DNA from: Peronospora farinosa
Taxonomy: Eukaryota > Oomycota > Peronosporomycetes > Peronosporales > Peronosporaceae
Assembly (NCBI GenBank): GCA_947646735.1
Contig: CANTFK010000226.1
Location: 1 to 64,000 of the forward strand
Length of the DNA: 64,000 nucleotides
Direction of reading: 5' to 3'
Under the pieces are notes generated by a model, which was not told the origin of the DNA, made no database searches, and saw nothing but the letters and a program-made list of their open reading frames with translations. This document shows positions 9,111-48,420 of this stretch, piece by piece. Every line of letters begins with the position of its first letter. Positions within the stretch are counted from its first letter, which is position 1. The position numbers and the translations under genes were made by a program.

Positions 9111-9126
9111 GCTCAATTCTCATGCC
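9111..9126 (+). promoter_or_regulatory. Oomycete initiator-like site at the antisense ORF start
   Basis: GCTCAATTCTCATGCC matches 12 of 16 positions of the oomycete initiator consensus as I recall it (GCTCATTYYNCAWTTT), including the GCTCA start and the CA core. It overlaps the ATG at 9122. If used, transcription would begin almost at the start codon and run against the retrotransposon. Then Met17 at 9170 is an alternative start. Confidence 0.35.
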
Positions 9127-9940
9127 ACCGAAACGTGGTAAGGCTGATGGGTCGCCTGCAAAGGCACCCATGCAGTCCAGCACTAAGCGCACGCGCCGCG
9201 ATCTATCGCAGCCGTCGCAAAGTGCGTCAGGCACTGGGGTGGATCTTCCATCTCACGATAATGTGGATGAAGATCCATCTCTCATTGTAGACTACAATGA
9301 GACCACACCACTGCCATCACCCCAAAGTGGCAATGAGCATAGTACATTGATGGGACGTATGTACCCATCATTTGAGGCACCCGTCCTTGAGGAAGCATCT
9401 ATTCTTCCTACAAGCGAAGGTAAAGACTCGTCGTCTGCGCCTACGAGCGCAGCGACTAAGACTGAGCACGCTACTTCGAAAGGAGCAGTCGCGACTCAGT
9501 CAGATGTAACTCCTCAAGCTGATGTCTTGACAATCCATAATGGAGAGTCAGACTCAGGTGACTGGGAGCTTAAAGCTCCACCAAGTACACCTTCGGCCTC
9601 ACTAGCCCGCCGTCGCGAGGGCGGCTACGTGAGTGGTGGCTTGCCATCAATGCCACCTCCATCTGAGTGGATGAACTCGGATGGGTCTTGTGCAGCGCTT
9701 TTGCAGCGTGCCACTATAGACGCTCATAGATTCTATAGCGTCTTTCCTTTGTGGAAAAAGCAGGGCAAAGCACTTGGTCGTGCTTTCCCAATTCCAGTCG
9801 TGCTGCGTTCTAACGAAACAGCCGACGAATATGAAGCTGATCTCCGGCGCCGTGTTACCTTGCATGAAGATGCAACGAAACAGCGGTCGCAGCGAATCAG
9901 CTTCGCCATGAAGCGTGCGCATGAAATTATGGGCGGTTAG
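9122..9940 (+). CDS. Antisense ORF of element B (aORF-B), conserved unknown protein
   Basis: A 272-codon ORF on the strand opposite to the element, starting 106 bases inside the 3' LTR. I do not recognise the family. Visible features: a basic, nuclear-signal-like N-terminus (MPPKRGKADG, then KRTRR at 22-26); VDYNETTPLPSP at about 56-67; a Ser/Thr-rich acidic middle; RRREGGYVSGGLPSMPPPSEW; and PIPVVLRSNETADEYEADLRRRV near the C-terminus. The element C copy at 47541 keeps the same N-terminus, VDYNENTPLPSP, and the ETADEY-like segment. The family A ORF at 21123 shares VDYESDT and a VPILLFAGETEDEE segment in the same order. Reading resumes downstream in decayed form to 10519 with a coiled coil, so the original protein was longer. 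The function is unknown; the location suggests an accessory or regulatory product. Confidence 0.6.
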   Translation: MPPKRGKADGSPAKAPMQSSTKRTRRDLSQPSQSASGTGVDLPSHDNVDEDPSLIVDYNETTPLPSPQSGNEHSTLMGRMYPSFEAPVLEEASILPTSEGKDSSSAPTSAATKTEHATSKGAVATQSDVTPQADVLTIHNGESDSGDWELKAPPSTPSASLARRREGGYVSGGLPSMPPPSEWMNSDGSCAALLQRATIDAHRFYSVFPLWKKQGKALGRAFPIPVVLRSNETADEYEADLRRRVTLHEDATKQRSQRISFAMKRAHEIMGG

Positions 9941-10519
9941 CGACCCCCAATTAATTCTCGCCACGCTTCTTCTGCTAGTCCTTCCGAACCTAGCAGAAAG
10001 AAGAATGCTGGTGCTGCTTCACATAAGCAGTCACCAGACCAGGCTCGTCAACGCGCAAAGCGTCCTCAGGCTCTCATGAGTCAAAGCTCGTTGGGTAACC
10101 CTTCCACTGGACAAGGATTTGGAGCTTTCGCTTCACAAACCGGTGGGCCAACAGCCTTCCAACAAGGAAGCGCGTATTCCCTTCCGTGTCCACCAACAAA
10201 GGTGGCGCCCGATAGGAGTGGCGATTACGCCCACCTACTCGCGGCTGCCTACCCTGCTTCTGTTCAGTCGTAGGCTGAGTCCGCTGCGCTGAAGAGGCAG
10301 GTGGCAGATCTCGAGAGTCATGTCTCGCGACTGACTTTGGATCTGCGCGATGCGAGGACGAGGGACCGTCAGGGATATGACCGCCTGAAGACTCCGTTTG
10401 GACATTTTAAAGCGACTGGTGATGAGAGACCCGCGTCAAGCGCGGAGTCCTCCTCGATCGCCGAGTCCTCTATCGCCTCGTTCGTATACGGGGAGCCTCT
10501 CGGTTTCCTCGTCGCCTGA
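9941..10519 (+). pseudogene. Decayed C-terminal part of aORF-B with a coiled coil
   Basis: After the stop at 9940, sense continues in shifted frames: a Gly/Ser/Gln-rich stretch (SSLGNPSTGQGFGAFASQTG, 10080-10140), then a heptad-rich segment LKRQVADLESHVSRLTLDLR at about 10290-10350. The family A antisense ORF also ends in a coiled coil. The segment overlaps the C-terminal integrase coding region on the opposite strand (from 10369), as in family A. At least two breaks separate it from the N-terminal ORF. Confidence 0.45.
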
Positions 10520-11835
10520 TCGGCCGCGACTCTCGACTCACAGTCTACGTCACCATCGGTCTCGTTAGACCGATGTGGATATGTGATCTCTTCTGGATCA
10601 ACATACCGTTTCAGACGACCCACGTAAAATACGGGGTGCGTCTTCATATACGGTGGGAAAGTGAGCCTATAACTTAGGTCTCCAACTTCTTCAGCCACTG
10701 TAAAGGGCCCAATGAATCGGGGCAATAGCTTAGTAGTACCACCAGGTAGTACATAAATTGCATGCTAAGGTAGGGTAGCAGTACTTAATAGCACTTTGAC
10801 CCCCACACTAAAGTGTTCATTATTTTTGCGACCATGCTGGTCTGCATATTGTTTTTGCTTGTCCTGTGCGCTTGCCATCGCGTCACGGACTTTACGTGTG
10901 ATGGCTAATCGCTCATCCACAAAGCGCTGAACTTCGCTCACGCTTTTAGCATCCAGCTCGACGATGACGCCTCCAAGAGGTCGTTCATGGGTCGACGTTG
11001 TTAATAACACTATAGTGTCATCTTCAAGGAGCGCTGGCATTTCTTACCGTGCCTCCTTTGTGACACCTATAGATGTCGTGACCACTACTAAATGAGCAGT
11101 GTCACTAGGGCAATTTTGGCCCTTTTTGGCATTCGCACCGAGCGAAGTGAGGGGCCTCCCCCACTAAGAATCGGGCTGCGTACAAACGAGACTGGCGTTC
11201 GAGGATGACGCAGTCCGTTAATGTAAAACGGTGGTTACCGTTTTACATTAACGGACTGCGGCACTGGCGTGAACACTATCATTAAAAGCAAACTCCACGA
11301 ATGGCAATTGTTTGCTACATTCTTTGGGAGTCGCTACTGTGCGCATTACATCCGCCACGACTCGATTGGCCGTTCTGTTTGGCTATCGGTCTGGGGATGA
11401 TCAGCGGTTGACATGTAGAGCTTGATATCCAGATGCTCAAACACATGTCGCCAAAAACCCGACGTAAACAGCGGATCCCGGTCCGATACTATGGATTCGG
11501 GCATCCCGTGTAGTCGATACACATGATCCAGAAACAAGAGGGCAGCCTCTTTTCCTGAGATCTTGCTGCTACATGGTGCCAACTGCACCATCTTACTCAG
11601 TCTGTCTACAAAGACAACGAGCCCCGTCCCCAGGAGGTAAGCCAAACATGAAGTCCAAACTGACCGACTTCCAACATTCAGTTGAAATCGGCATTGGCTT
11701 CAGTGGCGCACTGTTTGAAGATGCAGGCTTTATGCGCTGACACTCTTCGCAAGAGCGAATATAGTTGGCCACCCACCGATATAGGTGGGGCTACCAAAAT
11801 TCCTCTGACACTCGTAAAAATGTCTTTAACTGCCC
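10369..11835 (-). pseudogene. Integrase of left element B, decayed
   Basis: Minus-strand reading: the CC half of the zinc-binding motif (YIRSCEECQRIKPAS, about 11760-11715); the catalytic core with FVDRLSKMVQLAPCSSKISG, SIVSDRDPLF, and ADHPQTDSQTE (G to S in the usual DGQTE); then the C-terminal GPF/Y region MPRFIGPFTVAEEV with PVFYVGRLKRYV ending near 10560. Integrase inserts the cDNA into host DNA. The middle is broken at a 24-bp hairpin (11209-11260). Relative to element C, about 430 bases are missing at about 11836 (zinc-finger His half plus the end of RNase H). No chromodomain follows. Confidence 0.85.
11209..11260. repeat. Perfect 24-bp hairpin, templated inverted insertion
   Basis: Arms 11209-11232 and 11237-11260 are exact reverse complements with loop GGTT. 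Element C (near 49275-49310) has only the left arm followed directly by CACTCGTACTGGCG. The right arm here therefore looks like a snap-back copy made during repair or replication in this copy only. It disrupts the integrase frame. Confidence 0.85.
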
Positions 11836-20369: not shown

Positions 20370-21010
20370 TGTAGCGGAGCTATACAGCTCTTTAGCCAGA
20401 GGAAGACTTTCGGCTGGAAGCCTCTTAGTTCTAGAGAACTAAATAGAGTAAAGGCTAAAAGCCACTTAGTTCTAAGGAACTAATTAAACGACTTAAAGTC
20501 ACCCTGTTCTAAGGAATTAGGAAAGAGACTTTTAGTCAATAAAGCAATATGCTTAAGGTTCAGAGAACCAACGCACAGAGTGCAAGAACAAGCTAGAAGC
20601 TTAGGGGTTCAGAGAACCAACGCACGAAGTGCACAAGAGAGCAAGTCAGAACGACTTGCGATCTTAAACTCAAAAGGAGAACTGATTATATTTATGCTTT
20701 AAGATTTTATGAATAGTCCTACTCTAAGTACACTACACTAGATTAATTACTATAATAGTAATTATTATATGCAGACTTTGCTATTGGATGACGTATCGTC
20801 TAAACATCTGTGTATGATGTACTTAATACAGCGTTAGTGATTTATCGAATCCCAATCGATAAGATACGGTATTACCGAATACCGTATTATAACGCTCATA
20901 CTTAATACCTCTCTAACGAGAAGTATAATAATGCATTATATGCAATAGAAAGGAGAGTTCAAGCGTAAACTCTCGGAAAGACGTTACAACCGTCGTGTAA
21001 CCCCGTTACA
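20370..21010 (-). repeat. Family A LTR (3' LTR)
   Basis: On the + strand it runs TGTAGCGGAGCTATAC to CCCCGTTACA. In element sense it begins TGTAACGGGG, the same start style as families B and E. It contains the palindrome ATACGGTAT-taccga-ATACCGTAT and several direct repeats of GGTTCAGAGAACC. Confidence 0.92.
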
Positions 21011-21020
21011 CCCTCCCCCA
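21011..21020 (-). promoter_or_regulatory. Family A polypurine tract
   Basis: CCCTCCCCCA on the + strand (TGGGGGAGGG in element sense) abuts the LTR edge, as expected for the plus-strand primer. Confidence 0.8.
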
Positions 21021-21122: not shown

Positions 21123-22406
21123 ATGACGCCTCCCGGCAGTGAGTCACAGACTCTTAGGGACCTTATTGAGGACGACCTTGACGAAGCGGTTGATTACGAA
21201 AGTGACACCGTCTTTGTGGGACCCGATGGGTCCCCTTTAGCCACCCTCACGGGTGAAGATGACACTCGTCATGCACCGAATCCGTTCCCTGAACGTGGTG
21301 CAGCAGATGCGCTAACAGCGTTACGTGACCCGCCTGACGTATCATCAACGGTAACGGTTACCAATCCACTCGACGAGCAGCAACAGCGGTCCATCGACCA
21401 AGAGGAAGGCGCCAAGCGCCGAACGAAGAACATGACGCGGCTGCAGGACCACCGACAGTACAGGTTCAAGCCACCTACGGTGGAAGAACGCCTAAAGGAA
21501 GCATCTGGGCATTCCCTTTCTGGTTGGACCATTGGGCCTGAGGCCATTTCACCTGAGGATGTTGCCACGCGCACGGTACTTCGACAACGATATCTGGAAC
21601 CCCACATCACTACACAAAGCCAATACTTGGAACGCCTTAACAGGCAAGTGCGCGGTGCGCCAGTCCCTCCCATGAAGGGTGTTCCCATCCTTCTGTTCGC
21701 GGGGGAAACCGAGGACGAAGAAGACACGGCTTTCAGCCGCTGGGCGCATTATGCGCGACGTTTAAGCAGCATGTGGGCCCTACGGGCAAGTGCCGATGTG
21801 GCAGATGTTCGACTTGAGCGGAAGATGCGTTATGGTTACGCTAAATTAAAGGCCCGGGGAAAATTGAAATCCCAACGAACGCATTATGCGCCTGCTACCC
21901 AGCAGCCCAATGTTTCGGCTACCCCTGTAGCCGCGAGTTCACGACAGCCCGAGGCCGCTAACCCGCCTACCCTCACCATTACTGGTGAGAAGCGTCAGCG
22001 CCAACAGGCAGACCCTGCGCACGACGCTCAAAAACTTCCACGGCGTACGGGCAGTCCTGCCGAAGGGGAGTCTCAAACTCCCATGAATTCCACGATTCGG
22101 GATATCCCCGCCATTTCACCAGATACTGGTTTTGACCATGGCGGCGACGCTTCTGCAGTAGACGCTCCACATGGAACTGCAGGTTCCCCTGCGCATCGAG
22201 CAAAGGAGGAGGAGGTCGGTGTATCGGAACAAGCTCATGCCGAGCTTGTTCAGGAGGTGCGGAGCCTTCGTGAGGAGAGGCAGACGATGAACTCCCGGCT
22301 TGAGTCCCTGGAAGAGAGTCGGACCCGAATGCAGGTTCAACTTGACTTGTTGGTGCAGATGCTCCGTCCCGCGACAATGCCAATGGGCCCGGCGCGAGCG
22401 CCTTAG
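21123..22406 (+). CDS. Antisense ORF of element A (aORF-A), conserved unknown protein
   Basis: An intact 427-codon ORF opposite to the element, starting 112 bases inside the 3' LTR at ATG 21123. Family not recognised. Visible: an acidic N-terminus with VDYESDTVFVGPDGSP at about 23-38; a central basic region (RRTKNMTRLQDHRQYRF); VPILLFAGETEDEEDTAFSR; a Trp/Arg helix-like stretch; GEKRQRQQ; and a C-terminal coiled coil (VQEVRSLREERQTMNSRLES onward, about 375-415). VDY-acidic-T, P-I-aliphatic followed by ETxDE, and a terminal coiled coil occur in the same order in aORF-B. The last 428 bases (21979-22406) lie opposite the integrase tail and chromodomain coding region, so both strands code there. 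Of all the element A frames this is the longest without a break from its start. CCTCATTAG at about 21059 is a weak initiator candidate. Confidence 0.65.
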   Translation: MTPPGSESQTLRDLIEDDLDEAVDYESDTVFVGPDGSPLATLTGEDDTRHAPNPFPERGAADALTALRDPPDVSSTVTVTNPLDEQQQRSIDQEEGAKRRTKNMTRLQDHRQYRFKPPTVEERLKEASGHSLSGWTIGPEAISPEDVATRTVLRQRYLEPHITTQSQYLERLNRQVRGAPVPPMKGVPILLFAGETEDEEDTAFSRWAHYARRLSSMWALRASADVADVRLERKMRYGYAKLKARGKLKSQRTHYAPATQQPNVSATPVAASSRQPEAANPPTLTITGEKRQRQQADPAHDAQKLPRRTGSPAEGESQTPMNSTIRDIPAISPDTGFDHGGDASAVDAPHGTAGSPAHRAKEEEVGVSEQAHAELVQEVRSLREERQTMNSRLESLEESRTRMQVQLDLLVQMLRPATMPMGPARAP

Positions 22407-23530
22407 CGTCTATTTGGGACGGATCCCGATAAGGTTTCAACATGGCGACATAGAACACAGGATGTGTACGCAATTTGCGCGGCAAGTTAAGCGTATACGC
22501 TGTGCCTTTCTTGGCAATGACCTTAAAGGGTCCGATAAAGCGCGGACGCAACTTCGTCTTAAAGACAGCGGATACTACATTGGTAGGTAGGTTTTTCGCA
22601 TTAAGTAATACTTGGTCCCCGACCTCATAATCATTAATACAACCTCTGCCTTTCGCATCTGCATATTCCTTTTGTTTATCTTGACTATCAGCCATTGCAT
22701 CTTGCACATGTCGTAAGACATTTAGTCGCGTTGCGAGAAACGCATTTACCTGTTTCCTAACAGTATTAGGGCTGACATCAGCAAGCCGATCGGCAACCTC
22801 TCCCCCACCAAGCCCTGAACCACTCGGTGGTAGCGTTAACGGAACGCGTGGGTGTGTGAGACCATTGACATAGAACGGAGTGTAGCCGGTGGAGGCGTGC
22901 ACGGAGTTATTGAGTGCAAACTCAACTACAGGGAGCATAGAGCTCCATCGCTTAGGTGTTTCAGCACAAACGCTGCGTAGGATATCTTCAACAACGCGAT
23001 TTACGCGTTCAGTTTGACCATCGGTCTGCGGATGATCCGCCGTGGACATGTCCAAACGGGTGCCCAGCACCTGGAAGACGGACTTCCAAAATTTACTCGT
23101 AAAACGCGGATCACGATCAGAAACAATTGCCACTGGCAAGCCATGTTGGCGAAACACCCGATCGATAAACAGCTCCGCTGTACCCATACCATCGATCGAA
23201 TCTGGCACAGCCGCTAAGTGAGCCATCTTGCTCAAACGGTCAACAAAGACCACAATACCTGTATTGCCATGCGAATCTTTCGGTAGGCCAAATACAAAGT
23301 CCATACTAATGGAATCCCAGCACCCAGTGGGAATAGGCAAACTAGCCAGCGGCGCTGCCGAATGGGGCGAGGGTTTCACCCGTTGACACGTTTCACACGT
23401 GCGCACATATGTACTCAACCCATTTGTATAATTTGGGCCACCAATAACTTTGGCATACTGCCCCATAGGTCTTTTCGCGACCCAAATGACCACCGATGGC
23501 GGTGTCATGTACCTCATAGAGGATACGATA
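21979..23530 (-). pseudogene. Integrase and chromodomain of element A
   Basis: A 512-codon minus-strand frame. The zinc-binding His half (GGHLGREKT in the alternative frame at about 23480) and the Cys half (RTCETCQRV, about 23390) are split by two compensating small indels. The core is intact: FVDRLSKMAHLAAV, IVSDRDPRFTS, and HPQTDGQTE with the DDE residues present. Then ALNNSVHASTGYTPFYVNG, the GPF/Y segment RPRFIGPFKVIAKKGTAY, PVFYVAMLKPY, a Ser/Pro-rich spacer, and a chromodomain at the end (FHVERLLQKRRRHGQNQYLV then KWRGYPESWNSWE). The chromodomain would steer integration to modified histones. Its coding region overlaps aORF-A on the other strand. Confidence 0.9.
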
Positions 23531-25304
23531 CTCTCAGATCCTCGTCATGAGGAACTACAATACGCGGAGGATCCGCCACATCTGTACGATAGTACAACAG
23601 CCCCTCATCGATAGAATATCGATGGAGGCCCGCACGTAATCGTGCCGACAATTTAATGTCCGAGTCTTTAAACTCCTCACTGCCAAGAGCATGTAGCAAC
23701 GCAATACAGTGATCATCTTTAGCATACGCAGATCGAATGAGATCACTGATAGAAGACGACAACGTCGTAACATGAGCAAGCTCATAGTCAGGTCTGCGTG
23801 ACAACGCATCAGCCAAAGCATTTTGCTTGCCCGGCTTATATTTCACCTCAAAATTATATTCGGCAAAGAATGACAGCCATCTGGCCATTCTCTGCGAGAG
23901 ATGCGGCGAATGAGTCGCAGTGCGTAACGACGAATGATCGGTATAGATCACAAAAGGCTTTGAGCCCAGCAGATGAACTCTGAATTTGACCAGGGCATAC
24001 TTCATCGCAAGTAGCTCTTTGTCATGAACTGGATAGTTCTTTTCTGCAGCTTTCAGCTGGCGAGATTCAAAAGCGATTACACGCTCACGGCCTTCATCAT
24101 CTGATTGTAACAGAGCACTGCCAATGGCAAAGTCCGATGCGTCACAGACGACGCTAAACGGTCGGTCAGGGTCTGGCAAAGCCAAAATAGGAGCATGTAG
24201 AAGGCTCGCCTTCACCGCTTGAAAAGCATCTTCGTGTTGAGCATGCCAACACCATTCCACATCCTTTTTAAGGAGATTGGATAACGGCCGAGCCATATCA
24301 GCGTAATTTTCGCTATACTTGTGTAAGTAATTGGCAAGGCCAAGCCATTTACGCAAGTCCTTCTGAGATTGTGGAACAGGCCAATCGACTATGGCTTTGA
24401 CTTTGGCGGGATCCGCTCGTAGTCCTCGCTTTCCAATGAAGCACCCTAGAAAGGGAATCTCTTCGGCTCCGAAGATGCACTTAGAGGCATTAGCATATAA
24501 TTTATTAGTGCGCATGCACTCGAGCACTGCTCGTAAATGAACAATATGGTTCTCAATATCTGACCGCCCATGTTCAGCTCGGCTATGGACAAAAATGTCA
24601 TCAAAATACGTCTGTGCATAACTTCGATGGGGTCGAAACAATTGCGTCACCAAACGGTTAAACGTAGCCGGAGCATTAGATAGCCCTTGGGGCATCACTA
24701 ACCACTCCCAGAGCATACCGCTCGGAGTACTAACAGCAGTAAGCGGAATATCACTAGCTCGCATGAGCAATTGGTAATAACCATCGACTAAGTCGAGCGC
24801 ACTGTACATGGTACAACCGACCATATTGTTCTGAAGAACATCCTTTCTAGGTATTGGCGTCTGTGCAGGTATAGTGGCCGCATTGAGCTTATTATAAGCA
24901 TGAACAATACGCCATTTACCATTTGGTTTCTTAACACAGAAAGTGGGTGTCGAGTGTGGAGATTCGCTCTCGCGCACCATGCCCGCCGCGTGCTTTGCAC
25001 GAAAGAACTCGTCAATGACGTCACACTGTTCTTTGGGTAAAGGCCACTGCCGTGTTACACAGTATTTGGTTCCGGGAACCAAGTCAATTTCATGACGTAC
25101 GCCCCTATCAGGTGGTAGAACCGACGGTGGATCGTGACACACCACGTCCTGGAATTCTTTTACCAAAGGATAGTAGGGATCTGAAGGGTCCTTTAGAATA
25201 GATGCCCCACTACGTGCACTTAGTGCCGCTTTGGTATCTTCAAGGACTGTCTCATCGACAAGCGAGGATGAGTTCAGCTCGAGGTTAGGTCGAATGACCA
25301 CCAT
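23514..25304 (-). CDS. Reverse transcriptase and RNase H of element A
   Basis: An uninterrupted 596-codon frame. [61 protein letters not shown] (first Asp), [19 protein letters not shown], and [14 protein letters not shown] with the paired Asp near 24590. It ends with [20 protein letters not shown]. RNase [63 protein letters not shown]. All catalytic acids are visible. It would copy the RNA into cDNA inside the virus-like particle and remove the RNA. It is joined to protease upstream by a one-base insertion near 25295 and to integrase by another near 23520, so the polyprotein is broken although this segment is open. Confidence 0.93.
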
Positions 25305-26770
25305 ATCGGATCAGAGCACCTGCCTTCAAGGCCTGATGAAATTCATCCACAGACATTTCGCCTAGCTCTAAAAGAGCATTTAATGATGGGAGGGCCTCAA
25401 GGTCAACCTCACCATCTACATCACCTGTCACTCCGTTGACCAGGGTGTACAACTGGTCATTGACATTACTATGCGATAAAACAGACGCTTTGCGTCTCGC
25501 AGCCGCCATCTGGCGACGCTGCCGTCTCCTTGACGAGACCGTACTCTTCAAAGTACTTGGGATGTTATCATCCCCAAGGTCAACAGACCCCTTGTCGTTT
25601 ACCTGCCCTATGTAAGGGCCGATGTCATTACCGACACCCAATGGGTCACTAGTACCAGTGACTAACTTCACTCGCTCTATACGAGAGCCGATGTCATAAC
25701 CGACACCCAGTGGGTCACTAGTACCAGTGACTTCACTAACAAGGTCATTGACCTTCACTCGCTCTATACGAGAGCCGATGTCATTACCGACATCCAGTGG
25801 GTCACTAGTACCAGTGACTTCACTAACAAGGTCATTGACCTTCACTCGCTCTATACGAGAGCCGATGTCATTACCGACATCCAGTGAATCGCATTTCCAG
25901 CCAATATCACTAACAAGGTCATCGACCTTAACTTGCTCTATACGAGAGCCGATGTCATTATCGACATCCAGTGAATCGCATTTACAGCCAATATCACTAA
26001 CAAGGTCATTGACCTTAACTTGCTCTATACGAGAGCCGATGTCATTACCGACATCCAGTAAATCGCATTTACAGCCAATATTACTATAAGTATCACTTAA
26101 CGGAGTACGTGCCGTTCCACTAAGTGTCATTGAGCTCTGCTCGACACTATTATTGTTGACATCGGAGTTTATCAACTCAGACACTCCAATGTCCAGCACA
26201 TTAACTGAATCAGTTAATGGCTCGCGCCAATAGCACTTTTGTTTTCTAGCGAAGGTGGGTTCATGACTCTCCAAAGCTTCGCTAGGAACATCGCGCGTTG
26301 CGCCTAAAGTTTTGGATCTCCAATCGATCCACGGCTCATGGCGTTCCAGCCAGGCCATACCGAGAATGAGATCATATCTCGAGTCCAAATCTAGGACAAG
26401 ACAGCGTTCAACGCTATTGAAATCTAAAAATTTCACACCTAAGTTCAACGGAACTTTAGGAACGGTGACACGTACACCAGTCGCGAGACGTACGGTTATA
26501 CTGTCACCCTCTTGCGCTTCCAGCGCCTCAGCATACAGCTGACTCCCCTCAAGGGAGCGACGTCGGACATAATTCCCTGACGCCCCTGAGTCAATTAAAA
26601 TTGACCATGGTTTCTCAAAACCCTTAACGGTTGCCGACACAACCAACAAGCCTGGCTTGTAATTTTGTTCTATGGGAGCATCCACAGAACCACCTGGGAC
26701 TAAGCTCTGTTTACCTTTACCTCCTAAAGATTCAACAGAACTTAGTTCTTTCCCAGTAGGGCGCCCCGCG
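25285..26770 (-). CDS. Aspartic protease and repeat linker of element A
   Basis: Open from the gag-pol hairpin: [20 protein letters not shown], then the retropepsin core [20 protein letters not shown] and [20 protein letters not shown]. It cuts the gag-pol polyprotein. A long linker follows with six tandem copies of about 29 residues, then a Lys/Arg-rich patch ([18 protein letters not shown]) and an acidic end. The frame is -1 relative to gag. The likely translation route is frameshifting upstream of the hairpin at 26751-26780, so no own start codon is needed. It ends at a TAA created by a one-base insertion shortly before RT. Confidence 0.85.
25615..26095 (-). repeat. Coding 87-bp tandem repeat in the element A linker
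   Basis: Five to six copies with an 87-base period (29 residues). Repeats contain [16 protein letters not shown] with either [13 protein letters not shown] or [13 protein letters not shown], so two subtypes alternate by block. The frame is kept except for a partial copy at the 3' side. The period and in-frame length suggest selection for coding while the array expanded. Confidence 0.9.
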
Positions 26771-26793
26771 CCTACTGGGAGTCGACATTTTCC
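26751..26793 (-). promoter_or_regulatory. Putative gag-pol -1 frameshift signal of element A
   Basis: Perfect 10-bp arms TCCCAGTAGG (26751-26760) and CCTACTGGGA (26771-26780) enclose a 10-base GC-rich loop. The gag stop TAG (26772-26774) sits in the stem, and six bases upstream in element sense is GGAAAAT. Pol is open in the -1 frame across the hairpin (PVGAGRPTG). Family E has the same hairpin, with a canonical heptamer. The heptamer here is not canonical, so the exact shift site is uncertain. Confidence 0.55.
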
Positions 26794-27774
26794 CCTGCGG
26801 TGCTTGCCTTTTGGCTAGGAGCAGGGCTTCGGCTTTGCCGATTTGAACGTTGCTTTCGCAACGGACAGTTAGGGCGGAGATGCCTAGTGCTTCCGCACAT
26901 GTAACATCTACGGATGCTACCTTGCTGCTCAGCAGCTTGAAGCTCAGCTTCTTCAGCATGGCTGAGGTCCATGGGTTCCGCCCTATTAGAGATATTTGAT
27001 TGATACCAGGGCAGACCATATCGAGCAGATTTAAAATTGAATTCAGCGTTAAATGCTACGCTTACTGCCTCCTCAAAAGTTGAAGGCTGGACACGGAAAA
27101 CTTCCGTCCTGGCGACCCCAGTGCGAAGTCCCTCCATAAAAATGGTTACTCGGACTTCCTCTGCCAGTGGGTCCTGCTGCATAGCAGCAATGAGAGTTCT
27201 CAACTCTTGGACATAGTCCGACAATTCCTTCTTAACCTGTCGGGTAGCTAGGAAGCGTGAGCGCACACGATAAGCCTGATTAGGCGGTGCAAACACCCAA
27301 GTTAATTGCTTTTTAAGCATTTCCCATGTGGGAAATGCAGCATTTACAGAGACACCGCTCGTTAGAGCCCACTCTCTAGCTCTTCCACCGAGCTTAGAAA
27401 TGGCCAAGCCAACTCGTTGCTTATCGGATACAAGCATGGCGGCATCCATTGCCATTTCAACTTCTCGGATCCAGAGGAGAAGATTCTCTCCCTCCTTCCC
27501 CTCGAAGGTCTTTACATTTAAAACAAGTGGACGAGCCTTTTGGCTCTGCATCGGGCACAGGTACCGGAATGTACTGTGTAGGCGCAGCTGACGCTGCCTT
27601 GTCATGGACCTGCCCGAGGAGCGTTGCCTCATAACGCATAAAGGCCTCAAGACGAGCATTTAGAACCTCGGGGCCTTGGGCCAAAAGGGCCTCGATTTGA
27701 TCGGGCCCGACGAACGCCGATAGTTTATCTAAGGCGAGTCGCTGTGCCTAAGAGAGGTGATTTTGATTCTCCAT
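26772..27774 (-). pseudogene. Gag of element A
   Basis: ATG at 27774. The frame has an early stop (TAG near 27750) and one frameshift near 27530, so it is recently broken. N-terminal part: LSAFVGPDQIEALLAQGPEV. The capsid-like Retrotrans_gag region follows: [75 protein letters not shown]. Then the zinc knuckle [14 protein letters not shown] (CX2CX4HX4C) and a basic tail. It forms the particle and binds genomic RNA. It ends at the TAG inside the frameshift hairpin. Confidence 0.88.
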
Positions 27775-27832: not shown

Positions 27833-27834
27833 AG

Positions 27835-28479
27835 TGTAGCGGAGCTACACATCTCTTTAGCCAGAGGAAGACTTTTCGGCTGGAAGCCTCTTAGTTCTAG
27901 AGAACTAGATAGAGTGAAGGCTAAAAGCCACTTAGTTCTGAGGAACTAATTAAACGACTTAGAAGTCACCCTGTTCTAAGGAAGGAAAGAGACTTTTAGT
28001 CAATACAAGCAATATGCTTAAGGTTCAGAGAACCTTAACGCACAGAGTGCGAGGAACAAGCTAGAAGCTTAAAGGTTCAGAGAACCAACGCACGAAGTGT
28101 ACAAGAGACCAAGTCAGAGACGACTTGCGATCTTAAACTCAAAAGGAGAACTGATTTTATTTATGCTTTAAGATTTTATGAATAGTCCTACTTTAAGTAC
28201 ACTACACTAGATTAATTACTATTATAGTAATTATTATATGCAGACTTTGCTATTGGACGACGTATCGTCAAAACATCTGTGTATGATGTACTTAATACAG
28301 CGTTAGTGATTTATCGAATCCCAATCGATAAGATACGGTATTACCGAATACCGTATTATAACGCTCATACTTAATACCTCTCTAACGAGAAGTATAATAA
28401 TGCATTATATGCAATAGAAAGGAGAGTTCAAGCGTAAACTCTCGGAAAGACGTTACAACCGTCGTGTAACCCCGTTACA
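27835..28479 (-). repeat. Family A LTR (5' LTR)
   Basis: TGTAGCGGAGCTACAC to CCCCGTTACA, 645 bases, aligned end to end with 20370-21010 with scattered substitutions and small indels. It lies next to the primer-binding site and gag, so it is the 5' LTR of the minus-strand element. Confidence 0.92.
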
Positions 28480-30984: not shown

Positions 30985-30986
30985 CC

Positions 30987-34030: not shown

Positions 34031-34035
34031 ATTGT

Positions 34036-34760: not shown

Positions 34761-34837
34761 ACAGAAAATGTTGATGACGACAATGATATCTGTGCGTGTT
34801 GTATTGAGCTGGGGCTCAATGCGATGATCTCATACCC

Positions 34838-36400: not shown

Positions 36401-36599
36401 AGTCCTGACCGAACGCGTGCAGACTCGTTCTGCTAAGGTCCTCCGAACGCAGTCGTTTCACGATGACGTAGGCGCTCAATTAGTGCCCGCTGCCCACGTC
36501 GAGTCCGCTCAGCAGCCTCAGTCGCAGCATCCGCACGATCTTGATCTCTCTCAGCTATCTCGCGAGCATCAAGTAGGGCATTCTTTGATCCCGGGCTTC

Positions 36600-37009: not shown

Positions 37010-37316
37010 AGCCATGACGATCTCCTGGGTGACTCCGAAACCGAAACCTATTATGAGGCTCAAAGAATATGGATGATATGGTGTACGACCTCGGCTACGT
37101 GACGCCCACGTCGATCGTAAGTACACACTCTCACTAGCAGTAGCGCGCCATCTGGAGCTTCGAAAGGATTCCCTCATAAGGGGCGATCCATGGACGAATA
37201 TGATCGGGCATTTCCCCCGTACACACCAGCTCATCCCCTTCCTGCCGGACCGAGTACAATTTGGTCATGTTGCACGTTGGACCCGTCACGAATGTGGAGA
37301 TAAGAAAAGCGATAGT

Positions 37317-37521
37317 TGTAACGAGATTAGGACCCTTTACCTTCTTAAACTAACAGGACGTTGAAAAAGCGCTCTTAATTAACTCGTAAATATACCTCTG
37401 TTATTATTTTTGTTGTGTTTCAATTCGCAGTAAGTATGAATATGTTCCCTAGCTCATGGGAACACTCAAATGGAAGTCAATTTATTATTGGCTTCTTATG
37501 TTATAAATTGCCCCCATTACA
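37317..37521 (-). repeat. Family E LTR in minus orientation (3' LTR of the right copy)
   Basis: Read on the minus strand it starts TGTAATGGGGGCAATTTAT and ends near CTCGTTACA, with the middle (CCCATGAGCTAGGGAACATA) as in the other two family E LTRs. It is about 205 bases, shortened by loss of an internal block of about 100 bases. A polypurine tract lies at its inner edge. Confidence 0.8.
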
Positions 37522-37540
37522 TCACCCCCCCCCCTCTTTT
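37522..37540 (-). promoter_or_regulatory. Polypurine tract of the right element E
   Basis: TCACCCCCCCCCCTCTTTT on the + strand, i.e. AAAAGAGGGGGGGGGGTGA in element sense, directly beside the LTR start. Confidence 0.75.
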
Positions 37541-37866
37541 AGTTGCGCTTACCTCAACAAAAGCTTAAATGCAAGGAGTTTCTTTTCGACCAACGGCGTA
37601 ACTCTGAACCTGCTTAGCTAGACATATCTAAGCAGAATGGGTATCGAATTCCACGAAAAGATATCTTTGACAACCAGAGCTGAGGACACCTAGCGAATAT
37701 CCGAAGAGAGCAGGTGCCGCAGGTCATGGATGGGGACTTGAAACCGTGGCGCTTGTATGGTCTTGAAAGTGCTGTCGAACCCGAGCCACTGGTGGTCATG
37801 AAGGACCTCTTCATGCGATACTGTACAGTGAGAGGCAAAGCGACGAAAAATGCAAATACCGATGAT
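37541..37866. other. Unpaired segment between polypurine tract and right arm
   Basis: No homology to the left element's integrase tail or chromodomain. Open frames on both strands run into the arm at 37867. I recognise no domain. It stands where the missing 3' end of pol should be. Confidence 0.4.
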
Positions 37867-40800: not shown

Positions 40801-42850
40801 TTTGACGTGAATTTCGTCGTCTCGGTGATCGGCGTGCTCCTTTCTTGCAATGTCTTTTGCGTCTCTAGCCCCTGTTCGAGACTGGCACGTCGCTATCACA
40901 AAAGAATGATGTACCCCCCTCTAGACGTAGGAGCTCATTATCCATCACGTCGGTATCATGTGGATCTATGTCCGCCCATTCTCGTCAATCATAGGCGGGA
41001 TCTCGTCTTCGACCGCTTCACTTGTTTGCGGGAGCCACTGCTCGACCGCCTCAAAAATTGATCGGGAGCCTTTGCTCGTCCGATTTTTGTGTGTGCTGGA
41101 ACCGCTGTTCGAATGCCTCGTTGAGAATCGGGAACCCCTGTTCGACCCATGTCTGTGTATGCGGGAACTGCTGTTCTACCGCCTCGTTCTGTGGCTCCGT
41201 CAGTGTAACGGAATATACTGCGCACAGAGGTCCATCGCTCTCTCTCTGCTGACTACTAGTCGTGGCGAGCTCGTTCACGACCCTGACGTGAGGACAATCG
41301 GATGACGCGACCAACAAATGAGTAAACACTTCACTGACGTCATAACCGCTTCGTCGTTTGACGGACCGCGATAGCCAATCTATCTTCGGCTGATAACGTG
41401 AAAGCCACGGTATCCCAATTATGCAATCAAATGCATAGTTCATCTCGTACACCAAAAATTCGTCGTTGCTCTGGAAACCGTCGAAATTGTACGGTAAAAC
41501 CACTGTTTTACGCGGGACACGTTTTGGTTGTCCATTGGCAAGTTTGACAACGATGTCACCTACACCTTCTCGAACTGTAACAGTGGACGGGGAAAGGGAC
41601 AAATAGGATGCAAAAAGAAGTTATTGGAAGCGCCAGAATCCAACAACGCTCAAAGTGGTCGCTTCACTCCAGCGACGATGAGACTGATAATAATCTGTCT
41701 CAAATCATCGCGCATGGTGATGGCATTGAAATGATTGTGAATCACTTTAGGGCTAGGAGCCCGAGCTGCCACCTAAAAACTCGGGGCTCTATTTCTGCCA
41801 GTAGGGCGCCCCACGCCTACTGGAACAGCTCCTTTTTTCGGACCACCGACGACACAGCGTCTCCTCGTGAGGCAGCTGTGCTCATAGTCAAAGGCGCAGG
41901 TGCTCAACAGACAGCCGCGCGATGGCATTTCCTGCTGCAGCGAAAACACTTTATCGTGTTATGATTTCAAATATCGCGGCCTAATGACTTGCCGCGACCA
42001 CGAAAGGATTCGATTGCGTCAATTTTCATTGGCATTGGACCAGACGCCCGGGGATGTTTGACGCTGCATGCAGGTACGACGACTCGACAGTGTAATCTTC
42101 ACAAAGCGTGAGGGCAAATGCCTCCTCGAGGGACTTTGGCTCAGCACGTGTGAGACATTAACGCGTCATGCCCTTCTGCATACCAAAAATAAAGACATGG
42201 ACTTGTAAAGCTATGTCAATTGGCTGCGTGGTGATGCACGTAATCACGCATCAACAGCTTGCCCTGTCTGAGTGAGAAGAAATCTGCACGCAAGCGAGAT
42301 TCATCTTGAGGAGGCTTTAAAGCCAGTCGTAAGTCACGCTGGATATCGTCCAGCGTGGGGAACGCCGACTCGTCTACGACGAGCATCCGAGAACCCATTC
42401 CTTGGCTTTGCCAGCAAGACGAGACAGCAGAAAATTGACCTTAGCCGTCGGAGCGTCATATTAATCTTGACGCTATCGCAATATCCACCTCGCGAAACCA
42501 GCGATTAAAGGGGAGACGATCCGGACCATCACCGGAGTATGTTGACGTCTTCATCTTGATAGCGTCATGGTGCAAAGTGCGCGAGGGAGTCAATACTCGC
42601 CGATTCGCTTCGGCGAGCTCGTGCACCATAAAGTCTTGAATAGCGGCACGCTGATCATCGGACGTCGTTGTGCTCAGCATCGACGTCACGATAGTTTCAC
42701 CAGACACCGCCGCGACGCCGTGTAGTGCCTATTAATCCACCGTAGTGAGATGGGGAAGTCATAATGCTCCAGCAAGATCACTGGAGCCACGGAAGACTCG
42801 TCCATGTTCATCTCATATATGGTCATTGTAAGGACTACGAAGTGCTATCA
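37867..42850 (-). pseudogene. Gag-pol of element E, right copy, truncated in integrase
   Basis: The same domains as the left copy in inverted order: gag about 42707-41810, protease about 41717-41200, linker repeats about 41200-41000, RT about 40700-39810, RNase H about 39802-39080, integrase 39000-37867. Differences seen include GTKLRQWLS for GTKLSQWLS, EHQPAFD for EHQTAFD, RVNPAPP for RVSPAPP and DVLCIYAT for DVLCSYAT. The integrase ends at the arm edge inside the C-terminal region, and no chromodomain follows. Confidence 0.88.
41798..41838 (-). promoter_or_regulatory. Putative gag-pol -1 frameshift signal of element E, right copy
   Basis: The same heptamer (41832-41838) and hairpin arms (41798-41805 and 41816-41823) as in the left copy, with no change between them. 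Confidence 0.6.
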
Positions 42851-42852
42851 GG

Positions 42853-43135
42853 TGTGACGGGATAAGGACCAATTACCGTCTTACACTAAAAGGGCGTTGA
42901 AGAAGCGCTCTTATAACTCGTAAATATAACTCTGTTTTATTTTTGTTGTGTTTTAATTCGCAGTAAGTGCGAATATGTTCCCTAGCTCATGGGAATCACT
43001 CAAATGGTAGTCAATTTATTATTGGCTAATTATTGGCTCTGACACCCCGATAATAAACCAATAATATTGTGATGCGCAGTATCCGCTAATCAGACACTGC
43101 CCTATACCTACTTAATAAATAGGTTAATTCATCCA
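42853..43135 (-). repeat. Family E LTR, right copy, outer end diverged
   Basis: 42853-43054 is identical to the left LTR. Beyond, from 43055 to about 43135, it can still be aligned to 30700-30782 (shared ATACTG, TGATGC and TTAATAAATAG-like blocks) but only at roughly 70%. The expected TGTAATGGGG start is not found, so the outer end is lost. Confidence 0.65.
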
Positions 43136-43955: not shown

Positions 43956-43959
43956 GGTC

Positions 43960-44283: not shown

Positions 44284-45220
44284 AAGATATGCGAGCTCTC
44301 CACCAATGCTGAGTAAGAGGTACGCCTCCTTAGGCGCTCTTGATGAGGTGCTCACGGACTCTGGGCAAGGATCGCCCCAAGAGAGGAATAGTAGTGTAGC
44401 CTCTATTGACAATTAATGCAAGCGATACCATGCACCGAATATACTTCGTCTCCCAAACCTATTGCGATTATTGGTAAGACTTTAGAGGAAAGCATTAAGC
44501 CCTACTCAAAGAAAGTTGAGATCAAATACCTTTCAAGCGTAGAGGAACGCGTCAGCTTCACGCTTATGGTGTGAGCTATACCAGTAATGATGAAGGGATG
44601 CATCGATCTAACAATCTTTTATGTGCAATTTTACCGCACTGGCATCAAACCGTGAAGCTTTGACGCATTATACAAAAGAATCTTCAATCGTTCGCTGGTC
44701 CTTCCAGACCAACAATCTATCAGATTCTTTGATAGTATCCAACGTTTCTGATCAGGAGCAAGACGCAATACATTGGGATCGAGATACCCCTGCGTGGTGT
44801 CAACAGAAATACCGACACTACGTACAATGGAGTCAACAGAAGTATCGACACCACGTACAGTGGCGTCAGTAGAAGCACTGACATCACTCTTATCACTTCA
44901 ACCGAGTCATCATCTCTCGACTCGTTTGGCAAGTTGTCTGATTCATCAGACAACCCAAACATATTATCGTACATTGATTCACCTAATATACCACGACCCT
45001 TCTTCGTAAGAACCGAAGACGAGGTATCCCCCGGGGCGAAATCGGTATAGGCGCAGATTGCCTTTAGTCGGATGCGTCATCCGACTCACCGGAGTAGCCA
45101 ACGGATGATTATGGGTCAAAATCTTCACGTGGAGAAGTGGCCTTTGTCACGCTCCGTGACATCTCTACGAAGTATTTGGCTAAGCCCTGTTCACACCTCC
45201 TGAAGGTTCCACAAAGCTTA
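44284..45220 (-). pseudogene. Decayed protease and linker region of element A2
   Basis: Upstream neighbour of A2 gag in element sense. Near 44780-44890 the minus strand reads DATVRGVDTSVDSIVRSVGI and SVDTT, an 11-residue tandem repeat (33 bases, two to three copies) in the place where element A has its 29-residue repeats. No protease motif survives. Left of about 44700 I see only noise up to the orphan chromodomain. Confidence 0.4.
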
Positions 45221-45221
45221 G

Positions 45222-46260
45222 TTAACTTCTAGTAGGGCGCCCTGCGACTAGTGGGGATTCCACGTTTTCCCCCGACATCCCAGCCCTCCAGTTTAGAACG
45301 GGATTTCGACTTTTACGGTTCTGGCGTTGCTTAAGCAACGGACAGCTTGGGCGGAGTTGCCTTGTGCACCCGCGCATAAAACATCTTCGGATGTTAGATT
45401 GTTTCTCTGCAGCTTGAAGCTCAACTTCTTCACTCTCAGCATAACTGAGGTCCATGGGATCAGCCCTATCAAGCAAGCTTTAAAAATACCCATGAATACT
45501 AAAGAGAGCCGCCTTGTAGCCAAATAAATCAAACATTCATTGCCACTTTAATTGCTTCTGCGAAGGTCGATAGGAAAATAGCAACAGTTTACATTCTAGC
45601 AACCCCCAAAGCGAAGTCCTTCGATTAAATAATAACTTGGATCTCCTCCGACAGAGGACCATCTTTATAACAGCAAAGAGAGTTCGGAAATTCTGGACAA
45701 AGTCTGATAAATCCTTCTCCCTTTGCCGAGAACAAAGAAGAGTGGTCGCACGCGATTAGCCTGATTAGTCGGTGCAAATATTTGATGTATTTGCTGTTTT
45801 AGCATCCCTTAGATGTAAAACGCTGCGTCTATAGACGCATCGAACATTAATGACTATTTACGGGCTATACTGCTGGTCGTAAATGGCTTTTATATCCCGT
45901 TACTGCTCTGATCTGACCATAGCGGCGCTCATAGTCATTTTCACCTCTCGGATTTAAAAAGAAGTTTTTCGCCACTCCATATCTTAATAGTTTTTACGCT
46001 TGATGCAAGCGGTCAAGCCTTTCAGTTCTTCTCATCGGCTGCCAAGGGTAGCGTGTCGGCAAAGCCGACACTGCAGGGTCATAAATTTGGCCAATTTGCG
46101 TTGCCTCGTAACGCATAGATGCCTCAAGATGTGGACGTTCAAGCCTTTGGCCATTATGTGATCAATTATGTCGGCCTCAATTAGATCTGATACATTAATC
46201 AGTGCAAGGCAATGCGCATCAGAGAGTTGATAACTACTTTTCATTCCCACTGAGGCTCAG
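45222..46260 (-). pseudogene. Gag of element A2 (diverged family A)
   Basis: Minus-strand fragments parallel to element A gag: DRADPMDLSYAESEEVELQA, RRCFMRGCTRQLRPSCPL (zinc knuckle with second Cys changed to Arg), and GENVESP at the end. A Leu-rich N-terminal region lies near 46030-46250. Many stops. The hairpin arms CTAGT and ACTAG at 45229-45251 with LVAGRPT mirror the family A gag-pol junction. Confidence 0.7.
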
Positions 46261-46306
46261 TTGTTTATACAACTCAGGTGTCGGGTTGACTACACGTGCT
46301 ATCAAG

Positions 46307-46896
46307 TGTAGCGGAGCTACGCAGCTCTTTAGTCAGAGGAAGACCTATAAAGGATGAAAGCCTCTAAGTTCGATATAGCTAAATAAGCAACCCCTACAAG
46401 CCGCTTACTTCTATGAGATTCATTAAACGACTTTGAAGTCCACCCGTTCTACGGAATTGGGACAGGCTCCTTCAGTCTACAAGATTACGCCTACAAGCTT
46501 AACAAGCTTACGATTCAAAACGCTAAATGTACAAGGTGCACTAGAAAGCATGTATGATAAAGTCTTTGCTTCTATAATTTACAAATTAAGAGCTAAATTT
46601 TTATTTGATTATAAAAATATACCTAATTATAACCTGAATTAACTAATTCAAACACTATAAGAGTAAGATAATATGCAGTTGTCGATAGCACGATGTGTCG
46701 TCCATCCATCTGTGTATGATGTTCTAAGTACAGCAATATCGATTATCGAATATTTATTGATAGAATACGTTTTTCCCGAATACCGTGTTTTAATACTCAT
46801 ACTTAACAACTCTTCAAAAAGAAGTATCAAAAATACATTATATGCATATATAAAGACTTTAACTGTAAACTGTCGGTATATCTTCCCCAACCGTCG
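46307..46896 (-). repeat. Diverged family A LTR (5' LTR of A2)
   Basis: Starts TGTAGCGGAGCTACGCAGCTC, shares the family A blocks through the middle, and reaches CAACCGTCG where intact LTRs go on TGTAACCCCGTTACA. It stops there because another LTR begins at 46897. A primer-binding-like TTGATAGCACGTGTAGTC is at the inner edge (about 46288-46305). Confidence 0.75.
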
Positions 46897-47485
46897 TGTA
46901 GACGGACGCTTCGTAAAGAAGCTGGCCACGTACTACGCGGACACACCTTTATGCAGCGCGAGGAAGCGGTTAGACCGTCTTACCTCCGCGTGCGGTGGTG
47001 GTTGCGCTGGTAGGTCGCTTAATGCGCCGATCCAAATTGTTGCCGGCCGTTTGAAAGCGATCCGCGCAACGAACAACTAACAAGTGTCTCACTTACGTCA
47101 CGCAGAGCCTTATTCAGCTTCTTGTGTGCAGTGAGCAGTAATTAGGAAATTCAAGACTGACTTATATTTTATAAAAATGAAACTAAATATAACTGTTACT
47201 ACATATTGGTTGATATGTAAAGATAGGGTTCGCGTCTCTGTAGAAGCGTGTCCAACGTGCGAGTTTTAATGTATATAAGCTCGCTGATGACGTCCATCTA
47301 TGACGTCACCATGACGCTAGTACCAACTGAGCGTCTACCACGTCGAATGTGAATACACCTACATACAAAATGGTGTTACACATGGTGTGTCTCACCAAGC
47401 AACAGGTCTTATGTACCTACGTACCTTTAGAGACCTGCCCGCCAAGTATTATATACTTAACTAGCGTAGATATCGGCCCGTCACA
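46897..47485 (-). repeat. LTR of element C (B-like)
   Basis: TGTAGACGGACGCTTCG to GGCCCGTCACA, sharing blocks such as CGAGGAAGCGGTTAGACCGT with family B. It is followed by CCATCCCCCTTC, the complement of a polypurine tract, so it is the 3' LTR of a minus-strand element. Confidence 0.8.
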
Positions 47486-47540
47486 CCATCCCCCTTCTTT
47501 AAGACGATTTTTATATTTCGTATAATATCGAAAAGTAGAG

Positions 47541-47822
47541 ATGCCACCTAAACGCCAAAAGGCTGATGGGTCGCCTGCAAAGGCACACATGCAAAACAGT
47601 ATCAAGTGTACGCGCCGCGATGACTATCAGCCTTCGCTAAGTGTCTCTGTGACAACGCCAGTAAGTAATGTCAGCTTGTCACCAAAGAACACTGATCCAT
47701 CCTACTATCGTGCATATGAAGACTTGTCTTTCATTGTTGACTACAATGAGAATACGCCGTTGCCATCACCTCCACGTGGTAATGAGCACATTGAATTTAT
47801 GAGACATATTCCCCATCATTAG
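47541..47822 (+). pseudogene. Antisense ORF of element C, N-terminal part
   Basis: ATG at 47541, 56 bases inside the LTR. MPPKRQKADGSPAKAHMQNS matches the aORF-B start residue by residue with few changes, and DLSFIVDYNENTPLPSPPRG matches its VDYNETT segment. A TAG at 47820 ends the frame early, so this copy is broken, but the N-terminal amino-acid sequence is better kept than one would expect from the diverged surroundings. Confidence 0.65.
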
Positions 47823-48420
47823 GGGCACTTAACCTTCAGGAAGCTTTTATACATTCTAACAGGGAGGATCATGCCTCGTCGTCTCCGCCAACGAGCGTAG
47901 CGACCAAAACCGAGTGCGCTAATTCGAAAGAAACAGCCACGACTCAACAGCAATCGGCGATTCTAAACTTACCGCCTCTGTCAACCCTATGTCTGACGTC
48001 TTGACAACATATAATGGAAGGTCAGACTTAAACGAGGATGAGAAAAAAGCCCGTTCGACTTTACAGTCGGCATCACGAGAACGCCGTCGCGAGGGCGGCA
48101 TGTACATGAGTGATGGTTTGCCAGCATTGCCACCGTTATCCGAGTGGCCACGCTGGCGTGTAAATATTGAGACGCTTTTAATGCGTGCCAATTTTGACGC
48201 TAATAAACCTTTTAGCGTCTTTTTATCGTGGAAAAGACAGGGCAAAGCACGAGGTCGCGCTTTCCCTATCCGCGTCGTGTTGCGTTTTTATGAAAACGCC
48301 GACGAATACGAGGCAAAGTTCCTGCGCTGTGTTACACCGCATCTGCATGCGGTGTAACCCAGCGCAGGAGCTCTGCCAAACGAGACAAGTCTCGCGACTG
48401 ACTTCTGATCTACGCGCTGT
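47823..48420 (+). pseudogene. Antisense ORF of element C, central part
   Basis: The open stretch from ATG 47989 to 48357 continues aORF-C: ERRREGGMYMSDGLPALPPL, then ANFDANKPFSVFLSWKRQGK and ARGRAFPIRVVLRFYENADE. These align with aORF-B RREGGYVSGGLPSMPPP and RAFPIPVVLRSNETADE. The frame ends at TAA 48357. A coiled-coil remnant follows near 48380-48480. Confidence 0.55.

What the first reader, a model, noticed from the sequence alone, without database searches (positions are those of the whole stretch)
9122..48420. Antisense protein-coding gene conserved between diverged gypsy elements A, B and C
Each of the three elements has an ORF on the opposite strand, starting 56 to 112 bases inside the 3' LTR and running toward the end of pol (A 21123-22406, B 9122-9940 then decayed, C 47541-48357). 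B and C share MPPKRxKADGSPAKA and VDYNExTPLPSP. A and B share VDY-acidic-T early, then P-I-aliphatic followed by ETxDE, then a C-terminal coiled coil, in the same order. LTRs and DNA around the ORFs are diverged, so preservation of protein features suggests selection. Antisense ORFs at this place are known from plant Tat elements; I know of no description for this oomycete family. Possible roles: regulator, silencing suppressor, or packaging factor.
Basis: partly seen in the sequence, partly recalled or inferred. Interest (0 to 1): 0.78.

Follow-up and report, generated by a model that had tools for sequence, protein, structure and literature searches.

The report
Antisense gene in oomycete gypsy retrotransposons
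Gypsy-type jumping genes of downy mildews and, by indirect evidence, Phytophthora carry a second protein gene on the strand opposite their replication genes; it evolves like a working gene and belongs to a protein family with no relatives found so far.

Summary
In the part clear of pol, dN/dS is 0.34-0.42, against 1.5-2.05 in four of the five other frames; the fifth (mirror) frame gives 0.51 but is full of stops. Named relatives come from Peronospora, Hyaloperonospora and Phytophthora. A second lineage in the same genome (63% DNA identity) keeps 284 aligned codons open. In the overlap with pol, constraint switches strand: opposite the chromodomain only pol is conserved, opposite the SH3-chromodomain linker only the antisense coiled coil is. 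A chromodomain can be read back from the opposite strand of every ungapped homologue tested, eight Phytophthora species among them. The core is predicted confidently; Foldseek found no structural match. B is the same kind of gene, but its selection test is not significant. C is a decayed B relative, not one ORF. A-B homology is suggestive only. Plant Tat elements have analogous antisense ORFs; I found none described in oomycetes. Expression is untested. Most likely it makes a nuclear, self-associating regulator of the element (inferred).

The parts
20370..21010 (-). 3' LTR of element A (element runs on the - strand); TGTAG...TTACA ends; 97.6% identical (623/638 aligned) to the 5' LTR
27835..28479 (-). 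5' LTR of element A, followed inwards by a primer-binding-site-like TGGTAGCA
21011..21019 (-). polypurine tract next to the 3' LTR; a closely similar motif lies at the B and C LTR edges
21123..22406 (+). antisense gene A, 427 aa
21123..21978 (+). part of antisense gene A clear of pol; under purifying selection in the antisense frame (omega 0.335-0.424)
21360..21872 (+). conserved core of protein A (about aa 80-250); confident fold prediction, best for aa 141-250
22014..22175 (+). antisense codons opposite the pol chromodomain: no constraint seen in the antisense frame
22176..22403 (+). antisense codons opposite the pol SH3-chromodomain linker; predicted long helix / coiled coil (aa 369-414); constrained in the antisense frame while pol is not
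21979..23544 (-). 3' part of pol of element A: integrase core, SH3, chromodomain (22021-22176)
23514..27659 (-). rest of gag-pol of element A (gag, protease, RT-RNase H) in three further overlapping frames
9122..9940 (+). antisense ORF of element B (272 codons open, then decayed; frames of 480-518 aa in 6 of 8 other copies fetched)
8416..9015 (-). 3' LTR of element B
47541..47822 (+). first, still open piece of the decayed antisense gene of element C (93 aa); further pieces between 47810 and 48354 and at 48386-48631 in other frames

Best explanation
Shown by sequence: chromodomain-bearing Ty3/gypsy elements of this Peronospora genome carry an accessory protein gene on the strand opposite gag-pol. 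It starts about 110 nt inside the 3' LTR and runs into the 3' end of pol. In the A type its N-terminal part and structured core lie between LTR and pol and are under purifying selection; its middle, opposite the pol chromodomain, is not constrained as antisense protein; its C-terminal coiled coil, opposite a pol linker free to vary, is selected again. The reading phase is the same in two A lineages and in B. Protein sequences of the homologues from other species, eight Phytophthora species included, show the same arrangement indirectly. Inferred: an antisense RNA starting in the 3' LTR or the leader beside it makes a nuclear, self-associating (coiled coil), partly basic protein that acts on the element's own transcription or RNA, in the manner proposed for Grande gene23 or HTLV HBZ. 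My odds: selected protein gene (A) 0.95; regulator of the element's own expression 0.4; factor of particle or pre-integration complex 0.2; silencing suppressor 0.2; other 0.2.
For: Non-overlap omega of the window copy against 14 of the 35 other distinct copies: 0.09-0.39 in 13, 0.58 in one (L053); codon position 3 is the largest class of differences in all 14. Codon model on 24 stop-free copies: omega 0.424, lnL -2498.7 against -2517.7 at omega 1 (kappa on a grid); other frames 1.5-2.05 except the mirror frame, 0.506, which has 6-12 stops in each of 8 copies checked. With lineage L051: omega 0.335, 2dlnL 77. L051: 284 codons, no stop, 156 of 313 differences at codon position 3, aa identity 54% in the antisense frame, 31-49% in the others. 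Overlap: opposite the chromodomain pol omega 0.34 (2dlnL 15), antisense 1.2-2.2; opposite the linker antisense 0.44-0.50 (2dlnL 9-10), pol 1.2. Homologues: 63 at E<=10 for A, 29 for B, 47 at E<=1 for a profile with P. sojae and metagenomic rows; every row with an organism name is from Peronosporaceae. Chromodomain readable on the opposite strand: 21 of 21 ungapped peptides of the 23 in the first alignment (window plus 20 homologues), 0 of 500 controls reaching the real score for any of the 20 in two kinds of control; 19 of 19 in a second set (44 proteins, 25 skipped as gapped or not covering). Model confidence 83-92 for aa 141-250 and 85-89 for aa 371-410.
Against: No transcript, peptide or localisation data could be examined. 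No promoter motif shared by A, L051, B and C was found in LTR or leader. The B family test is not significant (omega 0.725, 2dlnL 2.8, 7 copies; pairs with window B 0.86-1.16). The basic stretch in the middle of A lies at the edge of or inside the part where pol, not the antisense frame, is constrained, so a nuclear signal there is uncertain. Some pairs are weaker: the four pairs of L053 with L052 and L054-L056 gave 0.50-0.74, and in one of six pairs (L001-L055, few changes) the overlap pattern was not seen (pol linker 0.44, antisense opposite chromodomain 0.55). Using stop-free copies favours low omega a little; the same sequences in other frames do not show it. The location in other species is inferred from protein sequences, not DNA.
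Confidence: 0.6

Rival explanations
1. The protein is an encoded suppressor of RNA silencing: an antisense transcript over pol would make double-stranded RNA, and oomycetes make small RNAs against gypsy elements, so the element carries a protein that blunts them.
For: PMC3522703 (passages) reports sense and antisense small RNAs along gypsy elements of Phytophthora infestans; the core has a conserved basic helix (RLERKLRFDYAKLKAR), which could bind nucleic acid (inference).
Against: No confident match to any described family or structure (Pfam; Foldseek).
Confidence: 0.2
2. The protein is a structural or escort factor of the particle or pre-integration complex, for example nuclear import or chromatin tethering together with the chromodomain integrase.
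For: Coiled coil, location beside integrase-chromodomain in A, L051 and B; a role in the retrotransposition process is proposed for plant counterparts (PMC7264820 section 7).
Against: It would be made from a different RNA than gag-pol and from the other strand, which does not ensure co-packaging; no direct evidence.
Confidence: 0.2
3. A host gene captured in reverse orientation, or a nested element, not an accessory gene of the retrotransposon.
For: Antisense orientation is odd for an element gene; Peronospora databases list such proteins as ordinary proteins.
Against: Every named homologue is from Peronosporaceae, about a hundred places match in this genome, and a chromodomain is readable on the opposite strand of all ungapped homologues tested in the same phase, so the gene has travelled with pol.
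Confidence: 0.05
4. Chance open frame or non-coding antisense regulator: conservation comes from pol, from the LTR edge or from a sense-strand frame.
For: In the stretch opposite the chromodomain no antisense constraint is seen: omega 1.2-2.2. For B the test does not exclude it.
Against: Two thirds of gene A lie outside pol and show frame-specific purifying selection; all three sense-strand frames there carry 6 or more stops in each of 8 copies checked.
Confidence: 0.03

Closest known systems
Antisense additional ORFs between pol and 3' LTR of plant elements (Grande gene23, RIRE2, Retand TRP28 ORFs)
   Same: Antisense to gag-pol, at the 3' end beside the LTR, conserved over many copies, function unknown, nuclear protein reported for Grande (PMC7264820 passages and section 7; PMC11963269 abstract, discussion, passages).
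   Different: Host is an oomycete; the element carries a chromodomain; no Transposase_28 domain found; the last third overlaps pol; no sequence similarity found to any Pfam family.
HBZ / APH-2 antisense genes of human T-lymphotropic viruses
   Same: Antisense protein gene near the 3' LTR; HBZ and APH-2 are nuclear (PMC11963269 passage).
   Different: No homology found; HBZ is a spliced bZIP protein (recalled); here one unspliced frame with a globular core plus a coiled coil.
Steamer-like Element-1 of the mussel Mytilus chilensis
   Same: LTR retrotransposon whose 3' LTR commands an antisense RNA with an ORF (PMC10974842, passages).
   Different: That ORF has 67 aa in another host group; relation to the present family not tested.
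Chronos elements (oomycete Ty3/gypsy with chromodomain and a second RNase H)
   Same: Oomycete gypsy elements with a chromodomain after integrase (PMC5348765, passages).
   Different: No second, archaeal-type RNase H found in element A; the word 'antisense' occurs 0 times in that paper's text.

Membership tests
Ty3/gypsy LTR retrotransposon (host element A) | LTR pair, PBS, PPT, gag, protease, RT, RNase H, integrase | tested here: met
   (integrase core 30.8 bits, just under Pfam's 32.6 cut-off; SH3 and chromodomain above theirs); PBS only PBS-like; no target-site duplication recognised
Antisense accessory ORF of the plant kind (as an arrangement) | Open frame antisense to gag-pol between pol and 3' LTR, conserved in many copies | tested here: met
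   with an overlap into pol
Antisense accessory ORF of the plant kind (as an arrangement) | Transcribed antisense | not testable with these tools
   no RNA data at hand
Retand TRP28 proteins | Transposase_28 domain (PF04195) | tested here: not met
   not among the Pfam matches (E up to 1, 0.1 and 1)
Plant Tat lineage | second RNase H, no chromodomain | tested here: not met
   chromodomain present, only RT-linked RNase H families found
Chronos | chromodomain at the pol 3' end | tested here: met
Chronos | second, archaeal-type RNase H | tested here: not met
   ORFs 23514-25310 and 21979-23544, Pfam only, E up to 1; RT phylogeny not done
HBZ/APH antisense retroviral genes | bZIP or homologous sequence | tested here: inconclusive
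   coiled coil predicted, weak GCN4 zipper chain matches (best E 0.087), no bZIP among Pfam matches
One family A + B | detectable homology outside the pol overlap | tested here: inconclusive
   score 26.4, best of 200 shuffles 23.5, probability 5%; whole-length comparisons 33%, 92% and 86%, the last on the coiled coil only

The most novel reading that the evidence does not exclude
Oomycete gypsy elements independently evolved an HBZ-like antisense regulatory gene. It encodes a possibly new fold and is spread across Phytophthora, Peronospora and Hyaloperonospora. Its overlap with pol is partitioned: chromodomain on one strand, coiled coil on the other, each using the stretch the other leaves free.
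Probability: 0.5. Interest if true: 0.82.

Novelty: new variant of a known kind. Interest (0 to 1): 0.72.

Why it matters
Conserved antisense accessory genes of LTR retrotransposons have been described above all in plants (PMC7264820, PMC11963269), and their function is open. A second family without detected relatives, with clear selection in the A type, about 100 A-type and over 100 B-type places in this genome and cross-genus homologues makes the question testable. It also gives a natural case of two overlapping antisense genes whose constraint can be mapped stretch by stretch. In addition, many 'uncharacterized proteins' listed for oomycetes appear to belong to these elements and not to the host.

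Tried and rejected

Rows dropped: of 50 loci fetched for A by two searches most are the same copies; 56 gap-free full-length extractions collapsed to 36 distinct sequences, of which 24 had no stop and entered the first codon model. L051, L057, L058 and L059 were left out of that set (gapped or partial). The deep test used 6 of the 24 plus L051; the pol/antisense overlap test used those 6 plus L052 and L054. The first chromodomain reading test used the 23 rows of alignment A1 (window plus 22 of the 63 hits) and skipped 2 (P0024, P0027) as gapped; the second used all 44 proteins P0095-P0138 and skipped 25.
Full report
What is there. The window lies in contig C52 of a 46.85 Mb genome. It is most likely Peronospora farinosa: contig C185 has exactly the length (243,674) given for the contig of a P. 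farinosa protein, P0080, and matches residues 19-224 of its 224 at 98%. Element A is a Ty3/gypsy element on the minus strand: LTRs 20370-21010 and 27835-28479 (97.6% identical), a primer-binding-site-like and a polypurine motif, gag, protease, RT-RNase H, integrase, SH3 and chromodomain. On the plus strand, from 113 nt inside the 3' LTR edge to 22406, runs an open frame of 427 aa. The pol stop lies at 21979, so 285 codons are clear of pol and about 142 overlap it. B has the same layout: in copy L061 (481 aa) the pol stop lies at antisense codon 289 in the same relative phase. In L051 the coordinates give the same phase. C is a decayed relative of B in several frames, with a stretch missing.

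Is it more than chance. The own genome gives 99 matching rows to A (95 of 659 candidates scored), 31 of the 99 full length without a stop by my count, and 118 rows to the B-type protein P0066 (117 of 1043 candidates scored). A protein search with A gave 63 proteins at E<=10 (7996 candidates scored), from Peronospora effusa, P. matthiolae, P. destructor, Hyaloperonospora arabidopsidis and brassicae and Phytophthora sojae among the named ones. A profile of four rows (P0059 from a metagenome, P0065 from P. sojae, P0033 and L051) gave 47 at E<=1, the named ones from ten Phytophthora species. No row with an organism name came from outside Peronosporaceae, but many rows carry none, and the search reaches only proteins sharing short exact words. 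One row bears the name 'anti-sigma-K factor RskA', which I take for a misannotation.

Selection. In the 285 codons clear of pol I compared the window copy with 14 of the 35 other distinct copies. Codon position 3 has the most differences in all 14; omega is 0.09-0.39 in 13 and 0.58 in L053. Ten pairs among five diverged copies gave 0.24-0.38 for the six without L053 and 0.50-0.74 for the four with it. A codon model on 24 distinct stop-free copies gives omega 0.424; omega 1 is worse by 19 log units. The same sequences give 2.05, 1.70, 1.51 and 1.97 in four other frames and 0.506 in the mirror frame, whose third positions coincide. That frame carries 6-12 stops in each of 8 copies checked, so I do not take it for a gene. 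Locus L051 on contig C58 is a separate lineage: 63% DNA identity over 284 aligned codons, no stop, differences 76/81/156 by codon position, aa identity 54% in the antisense frame and 31-49% in the others (the alignment was guided by the antisense protein, which favours that frame). Adding it to six A copies gives omega 0.335 (2dlnL 77) for the whole non-overlap part, 0.27 for its first half and 0.40 for the second.

The overlap. Over all 24 copies the overlap as one block has antisense omega 1.38. Split, it divides. Opposite the pol C-terminus and chromodomain (antisense codons 286-351) the antisense frame is not constrained (omega 1.16 with L051; 2.2, 2dlnL 6.4, with L052 and L054) while pol is (0.34, 2dlnL 15). 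Opposite the linker between SH3 and chromodomain (codons 351-419/420) it is reversed: antisense 0.44-0.50 (2dlnL 9-10), pol 1.2, not different from 1. Pairwise, five of six comparisons show the same in both stretches or nearly so; L001-L055, with few changes, does not. The linker stretch encodes the long predicted helix at aa 369-414. So the two genes appear to share this stretch by dividing it. All 21 ungapped peptides of 23 (the window's own and 20 homologues) scored above every one of 300 shuffled targets (z 9.3-13.6). As homologous peptides would do so in part by similarity, I added two controls with the same number of changes: permuted replacements and BLOSUM-drawn replacements, 500 each. 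None reached the real score for any of the 20. Among the 44 further proteins, 19 covered the stretch without gaps, and all 19 beat every shuffle and every BLOSUM control; they include rows named P. sojae, P. ramorum, P. fragariaefolia, P. cactorum, P. idaei, P. citrophthora, P. infestans and P. megakarya. This is indirect, but it places the gene opposite a chromodomain in Phytophthora too.

Protein. N-terminal acidic motif (VDYxSDT), NPFPERG and ITNPLDE motifs, a conserved core with PI-aliphatic...GET and RASxxxxDVRLERKLRFDYAKLKAR, a stretch predicted with low confidence, and the coiled coil. The core alone is modelled at pLDDT 88, pTM 0.69. Foldseek gave no PDB or viral match at E<=0.001; Pfam gave no believable family. 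B proteins begin with MPPKRGKADGSPAKAPMQSSTKRTRR, a bipartite-NLS-like stretch, and end in an RS/SP-rich tail (these labels are mine, no predictor was run).

A and B. The order core motif, then coiled coil is shared. Whole-profile comparisons give probabilities of 33%, 92% and 86%, but the overlap lies opposite related chromodomains in both. On the non-overlap part alone the score is 26.4 against a best of 23.5 in 200 column shuffles, probability 5%. I call this suggestive. B's own selection test is not significant: omega 0.725, lnL -1856.4 against -1857.9, 7 copies, mostly recent branches.

How it may work. Not shown here: transcript, protein, localisation. The position beside the 3' LTR implies a separate antisense RNA. 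In maize Grande such an RNA is made from a promoter upstream of gene23 and the protein is nuclear; in HTLV the antisense promoter lies in the 3' LTR (PMC7264820, passages and section 7); in a mussel element the 3' LTR commands an antisense RNA (PMC10974842, passages). With a coiled coil, basic segments and a core that must be a folded domain, I put a nuclear self-associating regulator of the element first (0.4), then a silencing suppressor or a particle/pre-integration factor (0.2 each).

What is known. PMC11963269 (abstract, discussion, passages) describes antisense ORFs in plant Retand elements, 97% of clusters with TRP28. PMC7264820 reviews plant cases. PMC5348765 (passages) describes oomycete Chronos and Archon and does not contain the word antisense. 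PMC3522703 (passages) reports small RNAs of both strands on P. infestans gypsy elements. The listings showed nothing on such a gene in oomycetes. The arrangement is therefore of a known kind, while host group, protein family and the divided overlap with the chromodomain are new as far as I could see.

Noticed in passing
window 30739-43098: Near-perfect inverted repeat, two arms of about 5.2 kb (99.6-100% identical) around a 1.9 kb centre, holding a third pol-like sequence; recent palindrome or assembly artefact.
   Followed up: no
window 25592-26086: Five to six head-to-tail copies of an 87-bp repeat inside the protease-region ORF of element A.
   Followed up: no
window 21979-27659: gag-pol of A lies in four overlapping minus-strand frames although the antisense gene is open; frameshift decay or programmed shifts not decided.
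   Followed up: partly
window 45180-46900 and 46897 onwards: An A-like 5' end with LTR abuts the LTR of element C: probably nested insertion.
   Followed up: no
window 59615-62425: Second partial copy of the B element with LTR, 93-96% identical.
   Followed up: no
window 2-154: Inverted fragment of an A-type LTR.
   Followed up: no
protein databases (P0010, P0095, P0100 and others): Many uncharacterized or unnamed proteins listed for Peronospora, Hyaloperonospora and Phytophthora are relatives of this antisense protein, one row with a spurious 'RskA' name.
   Followed up: partly
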